Source of the DNA: Clavibacter nebraskensis NCPPB 2581 | GTDB lineage: Bacteria; Actinomycetota; Actinomycetes; Actinomycetales; Microbacteriaceae | Direction of reading: 5' to 3' | Assembly (NCBI RefSeq): GCF_000355695.1 | Contig: NC_020891.1 | Span: 620,001 to 684,000 of the forward strand | Length of the DNA: 64,000 bases | Part shown: positions 15,735 through 55,281 of the stretch, in pieces | Layout of the letters: each line of letters starts with the position of its first letter | Position numbering within the stretch: position 1 is the first letter of the stretch | Notes under the pieces: model-generated | What the model saw: the letters and a program-made list of their open reading frames with translations, nothing else | Told to the model about the DNA's origin: nothing | The model's database searches: none | Made by a program: the position numbers and the translations under genes

Positions 15735-16408
15735 TCCGCGTGGTGCTGGTCGACGACCAGTCCATCGTCCGCGCGGGCTTCCGCGTCGTGCTGGAGACGG
15801 CCGGCGGGATCGAGGTGGTCGGCGAGGCCGCGGGCGGACGCGAGGCCGTGGAGCTCGTGCGCCGCCTCGCGCCCGACGTCGTGGTGATGGACGTGCGCAT
15901 GCCGGGCGGCGACGGCATCGAGGCGACCCGCGCGATCACCGGAGCCGACGCCGACGCCGACGCGGACACGCCTGGCGACCGGCCGGGACCGGCCGTCCTC
16001 GTCGCCACCACCTTCGACCTCGACGAGTACGTCTTCGGCGCGCTCGAGGCGGGCGCGCGCGGCTTCGTGCTCAAGGACGCCGAGCCCGAGGAGTTCATCC
16101 AGGCGGTCCGGGCGCTCGCCGAGGGCCGCGCCGCCCTCGACGGCGTCACGACCCGCCGCGTCATGGCCGAGTTCACCCGCCGCCGCGCCGCGTCCGCCGT
16201 GCACCCCGGCGCCGAGGTCCTCACGCCGCGCGAGCAGGACATCGTGCGGCTCCTCGGCGACGGCCTCTCCAACGACGAGATCGGCGGCCGGCTCGTGATC
16301 GAGACGAGCACCGTGAAGTCGCACCTCACGCGGATCATGACCAAGCTCGGCACCCGCGACCGCCTGCAGACCGTCGTGTGGGGCTACCGCTCGGGCCTAC
16401 TGCCCTGA
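15731..16408 (+). CDS. NarL/LuxR-family response regulator
   Basis: A 225-residue regulator. The receiver domain has DDQ near residue 9, the phospho-Asp in VVVMDVRMPG, Thr in VATTFD and Lys in FVLKDAEPEE. The C-terminal LuxR helix-turn-helix is LTPREQDIVRLLGDGLSNDEIGGRLVIETSTVKSHLTRI. GTG 15731 overlaps the kinase stop by 4 bp. An unusual alternating Asp-Ala run (GADADADADT, about residue 77) expands the loop after the third helix of the receiver domain; it is encoded by tandem GACGCC hexamers and is probably a slippage-prone loop insertion. Confidence 0.95.
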   Translation: MIRVVLVDDQSIVRAGFRVVLETAGGIEVVGEAAGGREAVELVRRLAPDVVVMDVRMPGGDGIEATRAITGADADADADTPGDRPGPAVLVATTFDLDEYVFGALEAGARGFVLKDAEPEEFIQAVRALAEGRAALDGVTTRRVMAEFTRRRAASAVHPGAEVLTPREQDIVRLLGDGLSNDEIGGRLVIETSTVKSHLTRIMTKLGTRDRLQTVVWGYRSGLLP

Positions 16409-48027: not shown

Positions 48028-49185
48028 TCAGCCGGGCGCCGGGCCCGCCGGCGCCCCGCGGCTGCGCACGCGCGACGCCCGCAGCGCCGCCGCGGCGGGG
48101 AGGCCGACCGCGCCCAGCGCGCCGACGAGCGCGAGGACGCCCCAGCTGCCCGCGGTGCCGACCGCGGCCACCGCGGCCCCGGACACGGCGGGCGTGATCG
48201 CCGCGGTGAGCCCCCAGGACGAGCCCACCATCCCGAGTGCCGCCACGTGGTCGGCGGCGGGGACGCGGGCGAGGATGGTCGGCACCATGCCCGCCGTCAC
48301 GAGCAGCTCGCACGCCGTCCAGCCGACGCCGAACGCGAGCCAGCTGTCGGTCGCGGCCGTCGCGACCGCGGTGAGCGCGCCCGCGGCGAAGCCGGCCACG
48401 AGGTAGGCCGGCGCCCGCTCGTCGCGCACCACGCGGAGCAGGAGCGGCTGCAGGCCGATGAGCAGCACGACGTTGGTCAGCGCGGCGTACACGTACGACC
48501 CCGGCGTGGCCGTCGTCAGCGCGAACTGGATCGCGAGGCCCTGCATCAGCGCCGTCCCGGCCAGGGCGACGAGGAGCGACGAGCCCAGGCGGCGGATCGC
48601 GGACGGCGACCCGCCGCCGGCCGGTTCGGGGTCGCCCGCCGCACCCGGGGCGGAGCGCGGCACGAGCAGCGCCACGACGAGCAGCAGCGCGCCCTCGACG
48701 AGCATCAGGGGCCCGTAGCCGATCCCGGCCGCCGTGACGAGGCCGGCCACGCCCGTCGCGACCACGCTGCCCACGTTCGCCGTCCAGGAGATCGCGGACT
48801 GCGTGCGCGCCTGCCGGTCCCCGTCCACCTGCACCGTGATGAGCGTGCCGATGAGCGAGCGCGCCAGCCCCGCCGCCCCGCCCACCACGAGCATGACCGC
48901 GGCCAGCAGGAGGGCGGATCCCCCCACCGCGGCGGGCAGGACGAGGAGCGCGGCGCCGTCGAGCGCCAGCGTGCCGATCAGCAGGGGACGCAGCGCGCGG
49001 CGCGGCGCGAGGAGCCCGGCCGCGGCGGGGAGCACGACGGATCCGACGCCGGCCGCCGTGAGGATCAGCGCGACCTCGCTCGTCGTGTAAAGCTCGCGGA
49101 ACCACACGACCGCGACGATCGACGTGAAGCCCGCCGCTCGCACGAGCACGAGGAGCGCGAGCAGGCGGCGCGGCAGCCGCGTCAC
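48028..49185 (-). CDS. MFS transporter (putative product exporter)
   Basis: A 385-residue transporter with 11-12 hydrophobic helices. RAAGFTSIVAVVWFRELYTTSEVALILTAAGVGSVVLPAAAGLLAPRR is the first helix pair and loop, and GAAGLARSLIGTLITVQVDGDRQARTQSAISWTANVG a conserved second block; the style is that of drug/metabolite exporters rather than nutrient importers. GTG 49185 overlaps the stop of the methionyl-tRNA-synthetase-like gene by 4 bp. As the last gene of the six-gene operon it would export or confer resistance to the product (inference). Confidence 0.82.
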   Translation of the reverse strand: MTRLPRRLLALLVLVRAAGFTSIVAVVWFRELYTTSEVALILTAAGVGSVVLPAAAGLLAPRRALRPLLIGTLALDGAALLVLPAAVGGSALLLAAVMLVVGGAAGLARSLIGTLITVQVDGDRQARTQSAISWTANVGSVVATGVAGLVTAAGIGYGPLMLVEGALLLVVALLVPRSAPGAAGDPEPAGGGSPSAIRRLGSSLLVALAGTALMQGLAIQFALTTATPGSYVYAALTNVVLLIGLQPLLLRVVRDERAPAYLVAGFAAGALTAVATAATDSWLAFGVGWTACELLVTAGMVPTILARVPAADHVAALGMVGSSWGLTAAITPAVSGAAVAAVGTAGSWGVLALVGALGAVGLPAAAALRASRVRSRGAPAGPAPG

Positions 49186-50423
49186 GCGCGGGCCCCCGCG
49201 CCGACGACCCAGGCGACGAGGGCGTCGAGCCGCGCGCGGTCGGTTCCCGCGGCCACGGCGTCGAGCCCGCCGCGGTCCGGCGCGGCGAGCAGCGACCGGG
49301 TGAGCCCGCCGAGGTCGAGGGCCGCGAGCTGCGCCGCCGTCCGCCGCCCGGCGGCGGGGTCCGCGTCGGGCCCGGGCATCGCGTCCGCGTCCGGGCCCGC
49401 GCATCCGGCCAGCGCGGCCACGCGCGGCGCCTCCCGGGACCCGAGCGCCGCGAGGTCGCGGAGCAGCAGCGACGCGTCGCGGCGGGCCAGCGCGAGGCGC
49501 AGGATCCCCCAGCGCACCGCGGTCGGCCCGTGCCGCTCGACGAGCGCCGACGCGGTGATCCCCGCGGCCGCCGCCTCCCGCGGGGACCGCCCCTCCACGC
49601 GCAGGTGGTGGTGCACGTGGAGCACGTCGGCGGTCGGCGCGTCGAGCGCCTGGCACAGGAGCGGCACGAGGGTGAGGTGCAGGTTGAGCAGGCCCTTGCC
49701 GAGCACCTGGATCCGCGTCGCCGCCTCCGCCCACCCCGCGTCGGGCCGCGGCGCCAGGTAGCTCGCCGCCGCCACGAACCCCGAGTGGATCACCTGTCCG
49801 GGGTCGCCCGGCACGGGCACGCCGTGCCCGCCCGTGCGGGACGCCGACCGCGAGACGCTGAGCGTCGCGGGCGGGGCCGCGCTCGCGCGCCCGAGGGCCG
49901 CGGCCGGGCCCCGGAGGTCGACGCGCGCGCGGAACGCGGCGATCCCCTCGGCGAACGGCGCGACGCGGAGGAACCAGTTCGGCTCGCCGTCGCCCGGGGG
50001 CGCCGGGCTCCCGCACCCCGCGCAGGCGGAGGTGGCGGAGGCGTCCGGCAGGGCCCCGCACCGGGAGCATCGGGGCCGGGCGTGCACCCCGCGCTCGAGC
50101 GCGCCCCGCGCCGCGAGCGCGTCCCACGCGGCACGGGCGTAGTCGGCGACCGCGGGCTGCGCCGTGGATCCCACGACGACGTCCCCGCCGGCCACGGACC
50201 GCGCGAGGGCCCCGAGGTGCGCGAGCGGCGGAGGCGGTCCGCCCGCGAGCGCGGGGATGCTGTGCTCGTCGCGCGTGGCGACCACCGCGGGGGCCCGGCC
50301 CCCCGGGCCCCCGCCGAGGATCGCCCCGAGGGCCCCCGCGACGACGAGGTCCGTCGCCCAGCCCGCGTGGTCGTAGGAGTGCGCGGACGCGGGCGGGACG
50401 GTGATGACGGCGCCCGGCCCCAT
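49182..50423 (-). CDS. Class I (methionyl-)tRNA synthetase-like protein, KMSKS lost
   Basis: A 413-residue homologue of the MetRS catalytic half. ITVPPASAHSYDHAGWATDLVVAGAL is a degenerate version of the PPxxNGxxHxGH start. A zinc knuckle is intact (C119-SR-C122 and C134-AG-C137, CSRCGALPDASATSACAGCG). NWFLRVAPF, RIQVLGKGLLNLHLTLVPLLCQALDAP and ASALVERHGPTAVRWGILRLALARRDA align with MetRS regions. The position of KMSKS instead reads VEGRSPREAAAAG, and there is no anticodon-binding domain. It is unlikely to charge tRNA and may activate or ligate a methionine-like substrate in biosynthesis. Coupled by overlaps to the radical SAM gene before it and the MFS gene after it. Confidence 0.72.
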   Translation of the reverse strand: MGPGAVITVPPASAHSYDHAGWATDLVVAGALGAILGGGPGGRAPAVVATRDEHSIPALAGGPPPPLAHLGALARSVAGGDVVVGSTAQPAVADYARAAWDALAARGALERGVHARPRCSRCGALPDASATSACAGCGSPAPPGDGEPNWFLRVAPFAEGIAAFRARVDLRGPAAALGRASAAPPATLSVSRSASRTGGHGVPVPGDPGQVIHSGFVAAASYLAPRPDAGWAEAATRIQVLGKGLLNLHLTLVPLLCQALDAPTADVLHVHHHLRVEGRSPREAAAAGITASALVERHGPTAVRWGILRLALARRDASLLLRDLAALGSREAPRVAALAGCAGPDADAMPGPDADPAAGRRTAAQLAALDLGGLTRSLLAAPDRGGLDAVAAGTDRARLDALVAWVVGAGARA

Positions 50424-51685
50424 CAGTATAGCGCGTTGCCGATGTAATTGGGCAGCGCCTGCAGCCGGCGCTCGAGGTCGTCGAGGTCGGCCGGGTACTC
50501 CTCTCTATAGCGCTGCGTGATGCGGTCGACGCCGTGCCAGTCCCGCGGCGGGCCGTCGGGGGAGTAGCGGTCGGCGACCTCGGAGTAGAGGGGCGTGCCC
50601 GGCCGGAGGAACAGCTGGTTGAGGCCGAAGTAGCCGGGGATGGTCGCCGCCCAGTCGACGATCTCGCCCGACTGGCACGTCGGGTCGTCGGGCAGCCCGA
50701 GCAGCACGAAGGCGAACGGCGTGATCCCGGCGTCCGCCAGCCGCTCGACGGCGAGCTGGATCTTCTCCGCCGGGATCCGCTTGCCCACGCCCGTCTCGCT
50801 CACCGCCGGCGACTCGGCACCGAGCCACATGCCGCGGCACCCGGCCTCCGCCCACGCCTCGACGTCGGTGCGGAGCACCACCTCCGTGCGCGTCTGCCCG
50901 GTCCAGCTCACCCCGCGGCCGGTCAGCCGCTCGCAGAGCTCGGTGTAGAAGGTCTTGTGCAGGCCGAAGACGTAGTCGAGGAAGAACACGTCCGAGACGC
51001 CGCGCGCGGTCTGCTGCTCGATGGAGGCGAGCGTGGTCTCCACCGGCTCGGCGCGCATCCGCGTCCCGAAGGGCAGGTGGCAGAACGTGCACCCGTAGGT
51101 GCAGCCGCGGACCCCGAGGGCGATGCCGCACGTGCTGCGGTGCAGGGATCCGTCGGTGAAGGTCTCGGCCGTGTAGAGGGAGGGGTCGATGAGCTCGTAG
51201 TCGGGCACCGGCATCTCCTCGGGGCCGAGCGGCGGGAAGACGCCGGAGAAGGGGAGCACGCGCGACAGCGGGGTGCCACCCGCCTCGAGCAGGCGGACGG
51301 CGCCGATCGCGGCGGCGTCGGACTCGCCGCGGGCGACGAAGTCGACCCCGAGGTCGTCCAGGGTGGCCTGCGGCAGCTGCGTGCCGTGCGGGCCGACGGC
51401 GATCACGTCGGCCGCGGGCCAGCGCTCGCGGAGGCCGGCGACGCAGGCCCGGACGGGCGACAGGTCGAGCGGGTAGCACTGGGCGCGGTCGGCGATGGCG
51501 GTGACGACCACGACGTGGTCCGGATCGGTCCCTGCGGGCGGTTCGTCGGCGACGCGCTGGTCCCAGATGACCACGTCGTGCCCGGACCGCTCGAGCACGG
51601 TGGCGGCGATGAGGGCGTCGAGGGGGTGCTGGAGGAAGTCGCGGGAGAACTCATCCTCGACGATGGCGAAGGCGGTGGACGGCAT
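50423..51685 (-). CDS. B12-binding-type radical SAM enzyme
   Basis: A 420-residue radical SAM protein. The N-terminal 150 residues are a cobalamin-binding-like alpha/beta domain (FLQHPLDALIAATVLERSGHDVVIWDQRV, VIAVGPHGTQLPQATLDDLGVDFVARGESD) but lack the His of the DxHxxG B12 motif. The radical SAM core has C195-x3-C199-x2-C202 (GVRGCTYGCTFC) for the 4Fe-4S cluster, followed by FFLDYVFGLHKTFYTELCERLTGRGVSW and ITPFAFVLLGLPDD. B12-type members methylate or rearrange unactivated carbons. AGGAAGG stands before ATG 51685. Stop and next start overlap (TGATG). Confidence 0.88.
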   Translation of the reverse strand: MPSTAFAIVEDEFSRDFLQHPLDALIAATVLERSGHDVVIWDQRVADEPPAGTDPDHVVVVTAIADRAQCYPLDLSPVRACVAGLRERWPAADVIAVGPHGTQLPQATLDDLGVDFVARGESDAAAIGAVRLLEAGGTPLSRVLPFSGVFPPLGPEEMPVPDYELIDPSLYTAETFTDGSLHRSTCGIALGVRGCTYGCTFCHLPFGTRMRAEPVETTLASIEQQTARGVSDVFFLDYVFGLHKTFYTELCERLTGRGVSWTGQTRTEVVLRTDVEAWAEAGCRGMWLGAESPAVSETGVGKRIPAEKIQLAVERLADAGITPFAFVLLGLPDDPTCQSGEIVDWAATIPGYFGLNQLFLRPGTPLYSEVADRYSPDGPPRDWHGVDRITQRYREEYPADLDDLERRLQALPNYIGNALY

Positions 51686-51698
51686 GGTGGATCCCTTC

Positions 51699-52709
51699 CT
51701 AGAGAGGTGCGTTGGTGTCGTTCAGGTGCTGCTGGAGGCGGTCGATCAGGTCGACGGTGCGGAGGGAGCCGGCGTCGAGGCGCGGGGGCGACGCCGCCCG
51801 GGGGTCGGCGAGGAAGGCGCGGAGCTGGACCACGTGCGGGGCGAGCCAGTCCGACGGCGCGGTCGTCGCGGGTCCCTCGCGGGCGTACAGGCCCGCGTCG
51901 GGGACCTGCTCGGGCGACGGCGCGAGGTCGAGCACGGCCGTCTCCGACTCGAGCACGACCGAGCCGGCCGTGCCGTCGAACGCCAGCCGTGGCGCGCGGC
52001 CCGGGAACGCCTCCGTCGTGTACCGCACCGTGGTGAGGCAGCCCGACGCGTGCTCGAGCGCGGCGGTGAAGGCGCCCTGCCGCATGCCGGGGCCGCGGCA
52101 GGGCGCCCGGGACGCCGTGACGGAGATCCGGTCGACGGGTCCCAGGCACCAGACCGCGAGGTCCAGCTGGTGGTACGCGAGGTTCCACAGCTCGTGGGTC
52201 GTGCGTGCGGGCGACGCCCGGAAGTAGGCGTCGGAGCGCCAGAGGGGGAGCTCGACGAGGGCCGTGCGGATCCGGCCGAGGTCGCCCGCGCGGATCCTCT
52301 CCCGGACGCGCCGTACGTCGTCGACCCGGCGCAGCTGGCTGATCACCTGCAGGGTGCGCCCGGCGGCCGCCGCGTGCCGGTCGAGCGCCCGGGCGCCCGC
52401 GGCCGTGAGCGCGGCCGGCTTCTCCACGAGCACGTGCGTGCCCCGGTCGAGCGCGCGGTGGGCGAGCTCCTCGTGGGTGTCGGGCGGGGTCGCGATGAGG
52501 ACGGCGTCGAGCGAGGCGTCGTCGAGCACGGCGTCGGGGGAGGCCGCCTCGTCGCGCGGGTCGAGCGGCCGCCAGCCCGGCGGGAGCCGGCGCGCGCCGA
52601 TCCGCAGTCGGCCCACGAGGGGCGCGAGCGCGGGATCCGTGCGGAGGAGCCGGTGGTACGTCGCGCCCATCGCCCCGAGGCCGACGAGCCCGACGTCCCG
52701 GGCCGTCAC
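51699..52709 (-). CDS. Gfo/Idh/MocA family oxidoreductase
   Basis: A 336-residue NAD(P)-dependent dehydrogenase. DVGLVGLGAMGATYHRLL is the Rossmann loop, AVLIATPPDTHEELAHRALDRGTHVLVEKPAALT the EKP motif typical of the family, and HELWNLAYHQLDLAVWCLGPVDRISVT the C-terminal substrate domain with the conserved H-x-x-D. Acts on sugars, inositols or related carbonyls. GTG 52709 overlaps the stop of the next-upstream dehydrogenase gene by 4 bp. Paired with a second, divergent member of the same family, so two redox steps on one intermediate are likely. Confidence 0.88.
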   Translation of the reverse strand: MTARDVGLVGLGAMGATYHRLLRTDPALAPLVGRLRIGARRLPPGWRPLDPRDEAASPDAVLDDASLDAVLIATPPDTHEELAHRALDRGTHVLVEKPAALTAAGARALDRHAAAAGRTLQVISQLRRVDDVRRVRERIRAGDLGRIRTALVELPLWRSDAYFRASPARTTHELWNLAYHQLDLAVWCLGPVDRISVTASRAPCRGPGMRQGAFTAALEHASGCLTTVRYTTEAFPGRAPRLAFDGTAGSVVLESETAVLDLAPSPEQVPDAGLYAREGPATTAPSDWLAPHVVQLRAFLADPRAASPPRLDAGSLRTVDLIDRLQQHLNDTNAPL

Positions 52710-53746
52710 GGGCGGGACCCGGCGTCGCCGCCGACGACCGGCACGGCGCGCGAGCCGAGCAGCAGGCGCGTGTGCTCGATCATGTCGAGGTCGACGTCGA
52801 TGCGGCGCGGGCGTCGCGTGACCAGGCGCAGCAGCGCGTCCCGCATCGACACCCGCAGCGGGTCGTCCGGGATCGTCCGCACGCGCCGGCCGTCGGGCGT
52901 CTCGTGCACGAGCAGCGCGGTCTGCGCGCTCGGGAACGTCCGCTCGTCGGCGTACGAGGGCGCGAGCCACAGCGTGATCCGCTCCCGCCCGTCCGACAGC
53001 CGCACCACCCGGTGGTTGGCCGGGTCGCACGCCGGGTCGTCGTCGGGCTCGAGCGGGACCGAGGGGGACGCCCCCGCGATGCGGCTGTGGAGCACGAGGT
53101 CCCGTCCGTCGGCGCACACGGCGGCGAACCGCGCCTCGACGAGGGACCCGCCCTCGTCGACGAGCTCGAGGCGCCGGGCGTCCGGATCGGTCGGCACGAG
53201 GTCGTCCCGGCTCGCGCCCAGCGCCCGGGCGATCGCGTAGAGGTGCGGCCACTCGTAGCCGAGCACCCCCGCGATCCGGTCGGTGAAGCGACCGCGGGCC
53301 TCGTCGGGCCGCCGGTCCTTGACGAAGCTCACGGTGAGCGCGTGCCGCGGGCGGATCCGCGCCTCGTGCCCGAGGGCCCGGATCGCGACGCTGTCCTGGT
53401 ACTGCGACGCCACCTCGAGCACGACCCCGGGGTGCTCCGCGATCAGCGCCCGCAGCGCGTCCAGCTGCTCGGGCGAGCAGACGGGCTTCTCCACGAGCAC
53501 GGCCGCGTCGGGGCATCGCGCGACGATCTCCCGGAGCCGGTCGAGGTGCGTCGCGGTCGGCGTCGCGATGATCCAGACGGCCGTGTCCGCGGGGGCGCCC
53601 GCGAGATCGGGGGAGGTCGGCCAGGGCACGGCGCGCGGGTCGAGGCGCGGATCCACGATCGTGACCTCGTGCCCCATGCGGTCGAGGAGGGACGCGCGCA
53701 GCAGGCCGATCCGCCCGCCGCCCACCACGGTGACGCGCACGCTCAC
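52706..53746 (-). CDS. Gfo/Idh/MocA-like oxidoreductase (second copy)
   Basis: A 346-residue NAD(P)-binding protein: VRVTVVGGGRIGLLRASLLDRMGHEVTIVDPR is a Rossmann fold and AAVLVEKPVCSPEQLDALRALIAEHPGVVLEVASQYQDS is the EKP block. The C-terminal part (VSFVKDRRPDEARGRFTDRIAGVLGYEWPHLYAIARALG) differs clearly from the neighbour, so this is not a recent duplication. GTG 53746 overlaps the SAH-hydrolase-like gene's stop by 4 bp. The substrate is unknown. Confidence 0.83.
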   Translation of the reverse strand: MSVRVTVVGGGRIGLLRASLLDRMGHEVTIVDPRLDPRAVPWPTSPDLAGAPADTAVWIIATPTATHLDRLREIVARCPDAAVLVEKPVCSPEQLDALRALIAEHPGVVLEVASQYQDSVAIRALGHEARIRPRHALTVSFVKDRRPDEARGRFTDRIAGVLGYEWPHLYAIARALGASRDDLVPTDPDARRLELVDEGGSLVEARFAAVCADGRDLVLHSRIAGASPSVPLEPDDDPACDPANHRVVRLSDGRERITLWLAPSYADERTFPSAQTALLVHETPDGRRVRTIPDDPLRVSMRDALLRLVTRRPRRIDVDLDMIEHTRLLLGSRAVPVVGGDAGSRP

Positions 53747-55281
53747 GCGCCCCGACGGAAGTGGTGCTCGTAGTACCTCTCGTAGACGCCGGAGGTGCGC
53801 ACCCACCCGTCGACGTCCGCGAGCGGCACGGGCGCGCCGGGCCGGGCCTCGACGCGCTCCATGAGGCGGCCGAGGACGATCCACGTGGCCGCGCGGTACA
53901 TGTCGTACCCGCCGTTCGGGATCCCCTCGAAGCGGTGCAGGTTGAACGACCGGCCGTCGCCGAGCACGACGGGACCGTCGTCCGGCCCGTCCGCGAGCGC
54001 CGACAGGTCGGCGGTCGCGAACGCGGTCACGTAGGAGGTCCGCGGCAGCGCCCGGAGCGTCGCCGCGTCGGCGATGGGCTCGCCCGTGCTGGAGACGAGC
54101 AGCGTGGGCGCCATCGCGACGGCCTCGCCGATGGACGGGGTCGTCTCGAAGCCGTCCTCGGCCGCAGCGATGAGCTGGAGGTGGTCGGTGTCGACCACGA
54201 CCACGCGGCAGCCGAGGGCGCGGAGCCCGCGGGCGATGCGCGCGCCGAGCGAGCCGAAGCCGACGCTCACGACGCGCATCCCGATGAGCTTCTCGCCGCG
54301 GAGCGCCTCGCGCAGCCGGCGGATGCAAGAGTCGGCGATCTCGTTGTAGCCGATGCGCTGCTTCACCTCGGACCGCGCCATGTTCGCCACCGGCAGGTCG
54401 CGCGCGAGCGGGCTGCGGGCGAGGCGCTTGAGCCCGCTCACGGTCAGCTCGACCGCGGCATCCGGGCGCTGCTGGAGCACGGACCGTCCGTCGGCGCCGG
54501 TGAGGCCGAGCAGCCCGCCGTCGTCGATCATCACCACCCGCTGGCCGGATCCGTGCGCGTCGGCGACGAACCGGTCGACGGCGCGGGCGGACTCCTCCGC
54601 GCGCGCGGCCTCGGCGCCCGACGCCGTGCCGTCGACGGCGGCGTTGTCGAGCTTCCGCACGTCCACGCCGTGCGCGCGCAGGGTCGCGGCGATGCGCGCC
54701 CGGTTGAGCGTGCGGTCGCCCTTGTCGAGCACCATCACCTCCTCGGGCGCGATGCCCGCGGCGAGCAGCGCGCGCACGAAGCCGAGCGAGTTCTCCACGA
54801 GGTGGTCGCGGAAGACGATCCGCCAGCCGCCCGGCGCGATCGGGTGGGTGCGGGCGGCCCAGTCGAGGACCGGCATGGCGGCGGACAGCGTGGCCTGCTC
54901 CTCCTCGGACAGGCGCCGGTCGTGCCGCTCGACGGCGTCGCGGAGGAGCTCCGCGACCTCCGGGTCGTCCGCCCGGACGATCGCGTGGAAAGCCCGGCTC
55001 CGCGGGTTCGCCGGGAGGAGGGAGCGCGGGGCGACGCCGCCGAGGTGGATCCCGACGTGGACGCGACCGCCCGTCGGATCCGTCCACGATCGCTGGCGGA
55101 GGTCGGCGTCGTCGTCGTCCGGCGCTGCCGGACGATCGGGGTCGGGGAGCAGGCCCAGCTGATGTGCCGTCGCGTCGAGCGCGGCCATCAGGGGGCGGGG
55201 ATCGGCGACGCCGGCGATGCTGCGATCGCGGGCCGTCGCGGGAGCGGTTCCTGCAGGTGACGTGGTCGAGAGCATGTTCAC
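53743..55281 (-). CDS. S-adenosylhomocysteine hydrolase-like NAD-binding protein
   Basis: A 512-residue protein whose C-terminal half follows the SAHH layout: LARDLPVANMARSEVKQRIGYNEIADSCIRRL corresponds to the INVNDSVTKSKFDN region, and GMRVVSVGFGSLGARIARGLRALGCRVVVVDTDHLQLIAAAEDGFE (about 335-380) is the NAD-binding Rossmann. The N-terminal half (FRDHLVENSLGFVRALLAAGI) also matches weakly. The catalytic Asp of KFDN and the C-terminal Lys/Tyr tail of true SAHH are not evident, so it is a divergent member, not the housekeeping enzyme. The start is GTG 55281 (leaderless after TACCGT) or ATG 55275. First gene of the operon. Confidence 0.72.
   Translation of the reverse strand: MNMLSTTSPAGTAPATARDRSIAGVADPRPLMAALDATAHQLGLLPDPDRPAAPDDDDADLRQRSWTDPTGGRVHVGIHLGGVAPRSLLPANPRSRAFHAIVRADDPEVAELLRDAVERHDRRLSEEEQATLSAAMPVLDWAARTHPIAPGGWRIVFRDHLVENSLGFVRALLAAGIAPEEVMVLDKGDRTLNRARIAATLRAHGVDVRKLDNAAVDGTASGAEAARAEESARAVDRFVADAHGSGQRVVMIDDGGLLGLTGADGRSVLQQRPDAAVELTVSGLKRLARSPLARDLPVANMARSEVKQRIGYNEIADSCIRRLREALRGEKLIGMRVVSVGFGSLGARIARGLRALGCRVVVVDTDHLQLIAAAEDGFETTPSIGEAVAMAPTLLVSSTGEPIADAATLRALPRTSYVTAFATADLSALADGPDDGPVVLGDGRSFNLHRFEGIPNGGYDMYRAATWIVLGRLMERVEARPGAPVPLADVDGWVRTSGVYERYYEHHFRRGA

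What the first reader, a model, noticed from the sequence alone, without database searches (positions are those of the whole stretch)
48028..55281. Uncharacterised six-gene biosynthetic operon: SAHH-like, two Gfo/Idh/MocA, B12-type radical SAM, MetRS-like, MFS exporter
Six genes on the minus strand are packed with 4-bp GTGA overlaps, one TGATG overlap and a single 13-bp gap. Together they hold a divergent SAH-hydrolase-fold protein, two different Gfo/Idh/MocA dehydrogenases, a radical SAM protein with a B12-like N-domain, an aminoacyl-tRNA-synthetase-like protein and an exporter. None of these is a housekeeping copy, and the set matches no pathway I can name. Family knowledge suggests a tailored small molecule, perhaps made from a nucleoside- or methionine-like precursor; that is inference.
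Basis: partly seen in the sequence, partly recalled or inferred. Interest (0 to 1): 0.85.

Follow-up and report, generated by a model that had tools for sequence, protein, structure and literature searches.

The report
Herbicidin-type nucleoside operon with MetRS relative
Six tightly packed genes in a plant-associated bacterium resemble the known genes for the herbicidin and aureonuclemycin family of nucleoside antibiotics, with one unstudied extra gene derived from a tRNA-charging enzyme that has lost its usual active-site signatures.

Summary
The six minus-strand genes are real and sit at the stated coordinates. The pathway is not unknown: the first four genes (SAHH-like, two Gfo/Idh/MocA, B12-type radical SAM) are homologues of the aureonuclemycin/herbicidin core set anmB-E/hcdB-E. 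A 2019 paper already names an hcd-like cluster in Clavibacter michiganensis subsp. nebraskensis (PMC6794829), and anmB-E alone make aureonuclemycin in Streptomyces hosts (PMC10339500). The four-gene set is in 10 of 16 loci read from one unnamed genus that I take to be Streptomyces; three have the window's order plus an MFS gene. The new part is the MetRS-like gene: in 6 of 6 Clavibacter/Rathayibacter clusters and 0 of those 16 loci. It keeps the MetRS fold but has lost KMSKS, the second HIGH histidine and the aligned pocket Trp, and its C-terminal part is about 100 residues shorter, yet it is under purifying selection. Best guess: it acts on the aureonuclemycin-like nucleoside, as an aminoacyl-transfer tailoring enzyme or else as self-protection. 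In Clavibacter the operon is an optional cassette at one site (5 of 18 genomes).

The parts
53743..55281 (-). AnmB/HcdB-like protein: SAHH fold from about residue 118 to the end, with an extra N-terminal domain of about 117 residues
52706..53746 (-). AnmC/HcdC-like Gfo/Idh/MocA protein with only the N-terminal Rossmann domain recognised
   Evidence: Pfam GFO_IDH_MocA E 3.1e-5; 31-40% identical to its homologue in 15 of 16 loci
51699..52709 (-). AnmD/HcdD-like Gfo/Idh/MocA dehydrogenase
   Evidence: Pfam GFO_IDH_MocA and C3 domain; 31-41% identical to its homologue in 10 of 16 loci
50423..51685 (-). AnmE/HcdE-like radical SAM protein with B12-type N-domain; CxxxCxxC at residue 195
   Evidence: Pfam, motif, NCBIfam nearest TIGR04295 and AprD4, far below their cut-offs; 51-65% identical to its homologue in 11 of 16 loci, apart from a second copy in L074 at 45%
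49182..50423 (-). MetRS-like protein, 413 aa: MetRS fold without KMSKS, with HAGW in place of HIGH, and with a shortened C-terminal part
48028..49185 (-). MFS exporter
   Evidence: Pfam MFS_1; an MFS gene ends the four-gene clusters of L064-L066 (27-31% identical)

Best explanation
The operon makes and exports an adenosine-derived tricyclic undecose nucleoside of the aureonuclemycin/herbicidin family. The first four genes (B, C, D, E) build the core: the SAHH-like protein probably oxidises a ribose 3'-OH with bound NAD, the two Gfo/Idh/MocA proteins carry out sugar redox steps, and the radical SAM protein probably forms the C-C bond between the nucleoside C5' side and a hexose. The MFS protein exports the product. 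The MetRS-like protein, translationally coupled to the radical SAM gene, is a former MetRS whose adenosine/aminoacyl pocket has been reused. It most likely binds the aureonuclemycin-like nucleoside and transfers an aminoacyl group to it, by analogy with the IleRS-like SbzA and the AlaRS-like AcmF. Shown: homology, gene set, gene order, distribution, selection and loss of motifs. From the literature: the four core genes suffice in Streptomyces. Inferred: the reactions and their order, the identity of the Clavibacter product, and the whole role of the MetRS-like protein.
For: Core: PMC6794829 names anmB, anmC, anmD and anmE as the necessary set, annotates the hcd homologues as SAHH, two oxidoreductases and radical SAM, and names a Clavibacter cluster of this kind. 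PMC10339500 produces aureonuclemycin from anmB-E alone. Locus L067 has a matching hcd-type set (LuxR/AAA regulator, B, C, E, D, methyltransferase, beta-lactamase-type protein, O-methyltransferase, POT/MFS transporter) and its B, C, E, D are 47, 33, 53 and 37% identical to the window's. L064-L066 have the window's order B-C-D-E-MFS. SAM dependence: the R. tanaceti cluster ends in a second metK whose ATG overlaps the MFS stop, while the three Clavibacter genomes searched have one metK each. 5'-deoxyadenosine, the usual by-product of radical SAM enzymes (recalled), is reported as aureonuclemycin B. MetRS-like: present in 6 of 6 clusters, TGATG coupling to the radical SAM gene in 6 of 6, dN/dS 0.24-0.62. 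Precedents SbzA and AcmF (PMC12945691).
Against: No product is known from Clavibacter or Rathayibacter in anything I read. Identities of the two Gfo/Idh/MocA proteins are only 31-41%, so substrates may differ. The LuxR/AAA cluster regulator is missing near the operon. SbzA keeps HYGH and AMSKA and the whole IleRS architecture, whereas the window's MetRS-like protein has lost KMSKS and about 100 residues of its C-terminal part; transfer from aminoacyl-tRNA is therefore an analogy, not a test.
Confidence: 0.75

Rival explanations
1. The MetRS-like protein is a self-protection protein: a decoy or binding protein that sequesters the nucleoside in the producer, or a relic of a resistant second MetRS. 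It adds nothing to the product.
For: Its nearest relatives found are a second full-length MetRS type; four of the six genomes searched with metG hold two full MetRS genes. Extra aaRS copies in clusters are often resistance genes (recalled); SbzA itself is called a self-resistance protein. Adenosine-type ligands could fit a MetRS pocket (inference).
Against: Without KMSKS, the second HIGH His and the aligned pocket Trp it is unlikely to charge tRNA, so a simple resistant target copy is unlikely. Loci with the same four core genes in the other genus do without it. The passages I read name no MetRS target for these compounds.
Confidence: 0.3
2. The four core homologues have been redirected to a different nucleoside, so the product is not of the aureonuclemycin type.
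For: The SAHH-like + Gfo pair occurs without the other two genes in some loci, fused into one protein of 903-910 aa in L073, L077 and L078, so the pair is probably used in more than one pathway. The Gfo proteins are only 31-41% alike.
Against: The whole set of four, in the order of L064-L066 with the exporter, is kept, and the radical SAM protein is 63-65% identical to those of L064-L066.
Confidence: 0.12
3. The MetRS-like gene is decaying and has no function.
For: Among the operon's proteins it has the lowest identity in 5 of the 8 pairs of clusters compared (55-60% between the two Clavibacter types against 85% for the radical SAM protein), and it has lost signature motifs.
Against: Open in 6 of 6 clusters, dN/dS 0.24-0.62, many invariant columns including HSxDHxG, TRD and four cysteines, and TGATG coupling to the radical SAM gene in 6 of 6.
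Confidence: 0.05

Closest known systems
Aureonuclemycin (anmB-E) and herbicidin (hcd/her/hbc) clusters of Streptomyces
   Same: Same four core enzyme types; in L064-L066 the same order B-C-D-E followed by an MFS gene; PMC6794829 already names a Clavibacter nebraskensis member
   Different: The window has a MetRS-like gene between E and the MFS gene; within the operon there is no LuxR/AAA regulator and none of the methyltransferase, acyltransferase and P450 tailoring genes described for herbicidin clusters
SbzA (IleRS-like, SB-203208) and AcmF (AlaRS-like, ascamycin), read in PMC12945691 sections 5 and 6
   Same: A duplicated aminoacyl-tRNA synthetase relative inside a small-molecule cluster; AcmF acts on a nucleoside
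   Different: SbzA keeps HYGH, AMSKA and the full IleRS architecture; the window protein is MetRS-derived, has lost KMSKS and part of its C-terminus, and its activity is untested
Cyclodipeptide synthases
   Same: Aminoacyl-tRNA-using enzymes of the class I aaRS fold without the ATP-binding signatures (fold and signatures recalled; only a listing and review passages seen)
   Different: Not compared directly; the window protein's listed matches are all MetRS
S-adenosylhomocysteine hydrolase (AhcY)
   Same: Fold over residues 118-512 and conserved DDGG and E-L-T stretches
   Different: Extra N-terminal domain of about 117 residues; the HFD motif reads ATAD and the C-terminal HYRY tail is missing; 15-20% identity in structure alignments

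Membership tests
Aureonuclemycin/herbicidin-type core cluster | SAHH-like, two oxidoreductases and radical SAM protein together (anmB-E) | tested here: met
   All four adjacent in the window; all four together in 10 of 16 loci read; definition from PMC6794829 and PMC10339500
Aureonuclemycin/herbicidin-type core cluster | Homology to a cluster with herbicidin-type tailoring genes | tested here: met
   L067: LuxR/AAA, B, C, E, D, methyltransferase, beta-lactamase-type protein, O-methyltransferase, POT/MFS transporter; B, C, E, D are 47, 33, 53, 37% identical to the window's
Aureonuclemycin/herbicidin-type core cluster | Cluster-situated LuxR-type regulator HcdR2 (common, not universal) | tested here: not met
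   The LuxR-type GerE domain nearest to the operon lies at window 16217-16381, more than 31 kb away. The paper has four clusters with binding sites but no such regulator nearby
Aureonuclemycin/herbicidin-type core cluster | Product is a tricyclic undecose adenine nucleoside | not testable with these tools
   Needs chemistry
Functional methionyl-tRNA synthetase | MetRS fold | tested here: met
Functional methionyl-tRNA synthetase | KMSKS signature | tested here: not met
   Reads SPREA, SPQAA or SPQSA in 6 of 6, where the 6 MetRS in the same alignment read KMSKS
Functional methionyl-tRNA synthetase | HIGH signature | tested here: not met
   HAGW, HVGY or HVGF in 6 of 6: first His and Gly kept, second His lost
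Functional methionyl-tRNA synthetase | YVWxD/EA stretch holding the methionine-pocket Trp (role recalled) | tested here: not met
   HSGFVA or HSGLVA in 6 of 6
Functional methionyl-tRNA synthetase | Anticodon-binding domain | tested here: inconclusive
   107-135 residues follow the KMSKS position in 6 of 6, against 210-221 in the six MetRS; model confidence is low there (blocks of 10 residues down to 32-41)
S-adenosylhomocysteine hydrolase | SAHH fold and NAD-binding domain | tested here: met
S-adenosylhomocysteine hydrolase | NCBIfam adenosylhomocysteinase equivalog score | tested here: not met
   34-38 bits in the three best models against cut-offs of 275-498
SbzA/AcmF-like aminoacyl transferases | Transfer of an aminoacyl group from tRNA to the small molecule | not testable with these tools
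   Needs a biochemical assay

The most novel reading that the evidence does not exclude
The MetRS-like protein is a new kind of nucleoside-tailoring enzyme: a MetRS that gave up ATP-dependent amino-acid activation, kept its adenosine pocket, and now transfers an aminoacyl group onto an aureonuclemycin-type core in plant-associated Clavibacter and Rathayibacter, giving an aminoacyl-aureonuclemycin that I have not seen described.
Probability: 0.3. Interest if true: 0.75.

Novelty: new variant of a known kind. Interest (0 to 1): 0.5.

Why it matters
It gives a concrete prediction of what an operon in plant-associated Clavibacter makes: a relative of herbicidal and antibacterial nucleosides. It also points to one unstudied protein, a MetRS relative without its signatures, that may either diversify the nucleoside or protect its maker. 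The operon's on/off presence at one site in the genus allows comparison of positive and negative strains without any engineering.

Tried and rejected
Rejected: a wholly unknown pathway (the four core genes match anm/hcd). Rejected: housekeeping copies (separate SAHH and MetRS in the genome). Held unlikely: origin of the MetRS-like gene by duplication of Clavibacter's own MetRS. On the tree the six MetRS-like proteins and the 11 rows of a second MetRS type are separated from the other 23 MetRS rows, the window genome's own among them (support 99/99), but the branch to the six is very long (3.29), the drawing is midpoint-rooted, and five of the six have an unlike letter make-up, so this is a lead rather than proof. 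Rejected: recognisable remnants of the operon in operon-negative Clavibacter. Nine of 18 have 77-86 bp between the match ends of the flanking genes; four have another 673-880 bp stretch, in which blastn finds only matches of 23-52 bp to the operon (E 4e-5 to 0.005) and tblastn one weak match (G3 protein in L119, E 0.094).

Led nowhere: Rfam on five loci of the second MetRS type (no match); a four-term paper search (0 papers); papers on the herbicidin cluster and tailoring pathway, which are not held. What I read of papers: PMC6794829 sections 7 and 9 and passages, parts of the abstract among them; PMC10339500, PMC9370760, PMC12868415 and PMC11521342 passages only; PMC12945691 sections 5 and 6 and passages. 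The remark that I saw no discussion of the MetRS-like gene in print rests on these and on searches alone; 'tRNA' occurs 0 times in the main text of PMC6794829, and its Fig. 3, which draws the mined clusters, could not be seen.

Limits: the genome search scored only the best few candidates per genome (3). The genus of the 392 genomes is unnamed; I take it to be Streptomyces from genome size (mostly 7-11 Mb) and from the hcd-type cluster of L067. In the family search 7 of 398 genomes matched at E <= 1e-10: the window's own and G687 over nearly full length, the other five over 164-204 residues at 32-36%; not all Clavibacter genomes were drawn there. dS was computed by a simple Nei-Gojobori script. 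The profile search for MetRS-like proteins covered about 19.5 kb around each of 16 hits (13 kb for one), with a best chance match at E 0.39.

Full report
What is there. The window is bases 620001-684000 of a single-contig genome of 3,063,596 bases. The genus is Clavibacter: a same-genus genome in the search (G1175) has a contig of the same length (2,167,218), with the operon in the same range, as the named record NZ_JADKRR010000001.1, Clavibacter sp. VKM Ac-2872. From memory, the genome length is that of C. nebraskensis NCPPB 2581; no call names it.

What it is. PMC6794829 (sections 7 and 9 and passages read) gives anmB, anmC, anmD and anmE as the necessary set for aureonuclemycin, annotates the herbicidin homologues hcdB (SAHH), hcdC and hcdD (oxidoreductases) and hcdE (radical SAM), and reports 15 further clusters in actinomycetes; its discussion names one in C. 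michiganensis subsp. nebraskensis NCPPB 2581. PMC10339500 (passages) makes aureonuclemycin from the anmB-E cassette in S. albus and S. lividans. This is the same gene set as the first four genes of the window.

Test by sequence. The SAHH-like protein was found at E <= 1e-40 in 16 of 392 genomes of one genus, unnamed, which I take to be Streptomyces. I read about 19.5 kb around each (13 kb for one). In 10 of 16 all four core homologues are present: L064, L065, L066, L067, L068, L069, L071, L072, L074, L075. L064-L066 have the window's order followed by an MFS gene. L067, L068, L069, L071 and L075 have the order SAHH-like, Gfo, radical SAM, Gfo. So does L074, where the radical SAM gene in line is only 45% identical and a second one at 62% lies upstream on the other strand; in L072 the radical SAM gene lies upstream on the other strand. 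L067 also has the regulator and tailoring types listed for hcd: LuxR/AAA protein of 945 aa, methyltransferase, beta-lactamase-type protein, O-methyltransferase of 367 aa and a POT/MFS transporter. The remaining six loci (L070, L073, L076-L079) lack one or more core genes; in L073, L077 and L078 the SAHH-like and the first Gfo protein are one protein of 903-910 aa, and in L079 the SAHH-like part is broken in frame.

Where it sits. All 18 Clavibacter genomes searched have the flanking nitrilase gene. Between it and the aldo-keto reductase gene, 5 of 18 have the operon (the window, L080, L112, L115, L116), 9 have 77-86 bp between match ends, and 4 have another stretch of 673-880 bp. Flanking genes of the pairs of operon-positive genomes compared differ by dS 0.06-0.25. 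The operon of the window differs from those of L039 and L080 by dS 0.50-0.77, and from that of L112 by 0.07-0.13; L039, L080 and L115 differ among themselves by 0.22-0.49. I read this as at least two old versions of the operon at one site: an optional cassette gained or exchanged more than once. That is inference; no species tree was built.

SAM. The R. tanaceti cluster runs on into a SAM synthetase gene whose ATG overlaps the MFS stop; that genome has two such genes, the three Clavibacter genomes searched have one each. This fits a pathway that spends SAM in the radical SAM step. 5'-deoxyadenosine, the usual leftover of radical SAM enzymes (recalled), is reported as aureonuclemycin B in PMC9370760 (passages).

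How it probably works. [quoted passage not shown] The SAHH-like protein keeps the SAHH fold and the DDGG and E-L-T stretches, while the HFD motif and the C-terminal tail are gone, which suggests 3'-oxidation of a nucleoside without SAHH's normal elimination. The alignment around the SAHH lysine is not the same, so I do not lean on that residue. The radical SAM protein then most likely makes the C-C bond; both are inference. For the MetRS-like protein the best precedents are SbzA and AcmF, aaRS-derived enzymes that move an aminoacyl group from tRNA to a small molecule (PMC12945691 sections 5 and 6). Against a simple copy of that model, SbzA keeps its signatures and tRNA-binding parts and the window protein does not. 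I put transfer or other tailoring at about 0.4-0.5, self-protection at 0.3, and decay at 0.05.

Verdict. Ordinary in its core and already noted by genome mining in 2019; new, as far as my reading goes, in its MetRS-like member, in the cassette behaviour within Clavibacter, and in the second SAM synthetase of R. tanaceti.

Noticed in passing
L073 8073-10784, L077 7401-10121, L078 9914-12646: In three loci of the genus taken to be Streptomyces the SAHH-like and the first Gfo/Idh/MocA protein are fused in one protein of 903-910 aa, with neither of the other two core genes found in the stretch read (both domains seen by Pfam in L077): a second pathway may use this pair.
   Followed up: partly
L040 17093-18325: R. 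tanaceti has a second SAM synthetase gene at the end of its cluster, overlapping the MFS gene's stop codon.
   Followed up: yes
L111 1877-2745, L118 1883-2764, L114 11371-12045, L119 11213-12060: Four operon-negative Clavibacter genomes share a related stretch of 673-880 bp, unlike the operon, at the site where the operon sits in others, so the site seems to accept inserts.
   Followed up: partly
L130-L140: A second MetRS type with GTDDN in place of GTDEH and a KLAKS/KIAKS/KISKS signature; the three genomes of this group checked (G1271, G1286, G1308) also hold a canonical MetRS. Its role is unknown to me.
   Followed up: partly
G1179 C48:19708-20523 (L129): The only match to the SAHH family PF05221 in the R. 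tanaceti genome is partial (62.7 bits, positions 177-286 of 299), against 482-483 bits in three Clavibacter genomes; draft assembly or loss, not resolved.
   Followed up: no
L040 10001-11484: The SAHH-like gene of R. tanaceti reads in two frames in this draft contig; described only, not mended.
   Followed up: no
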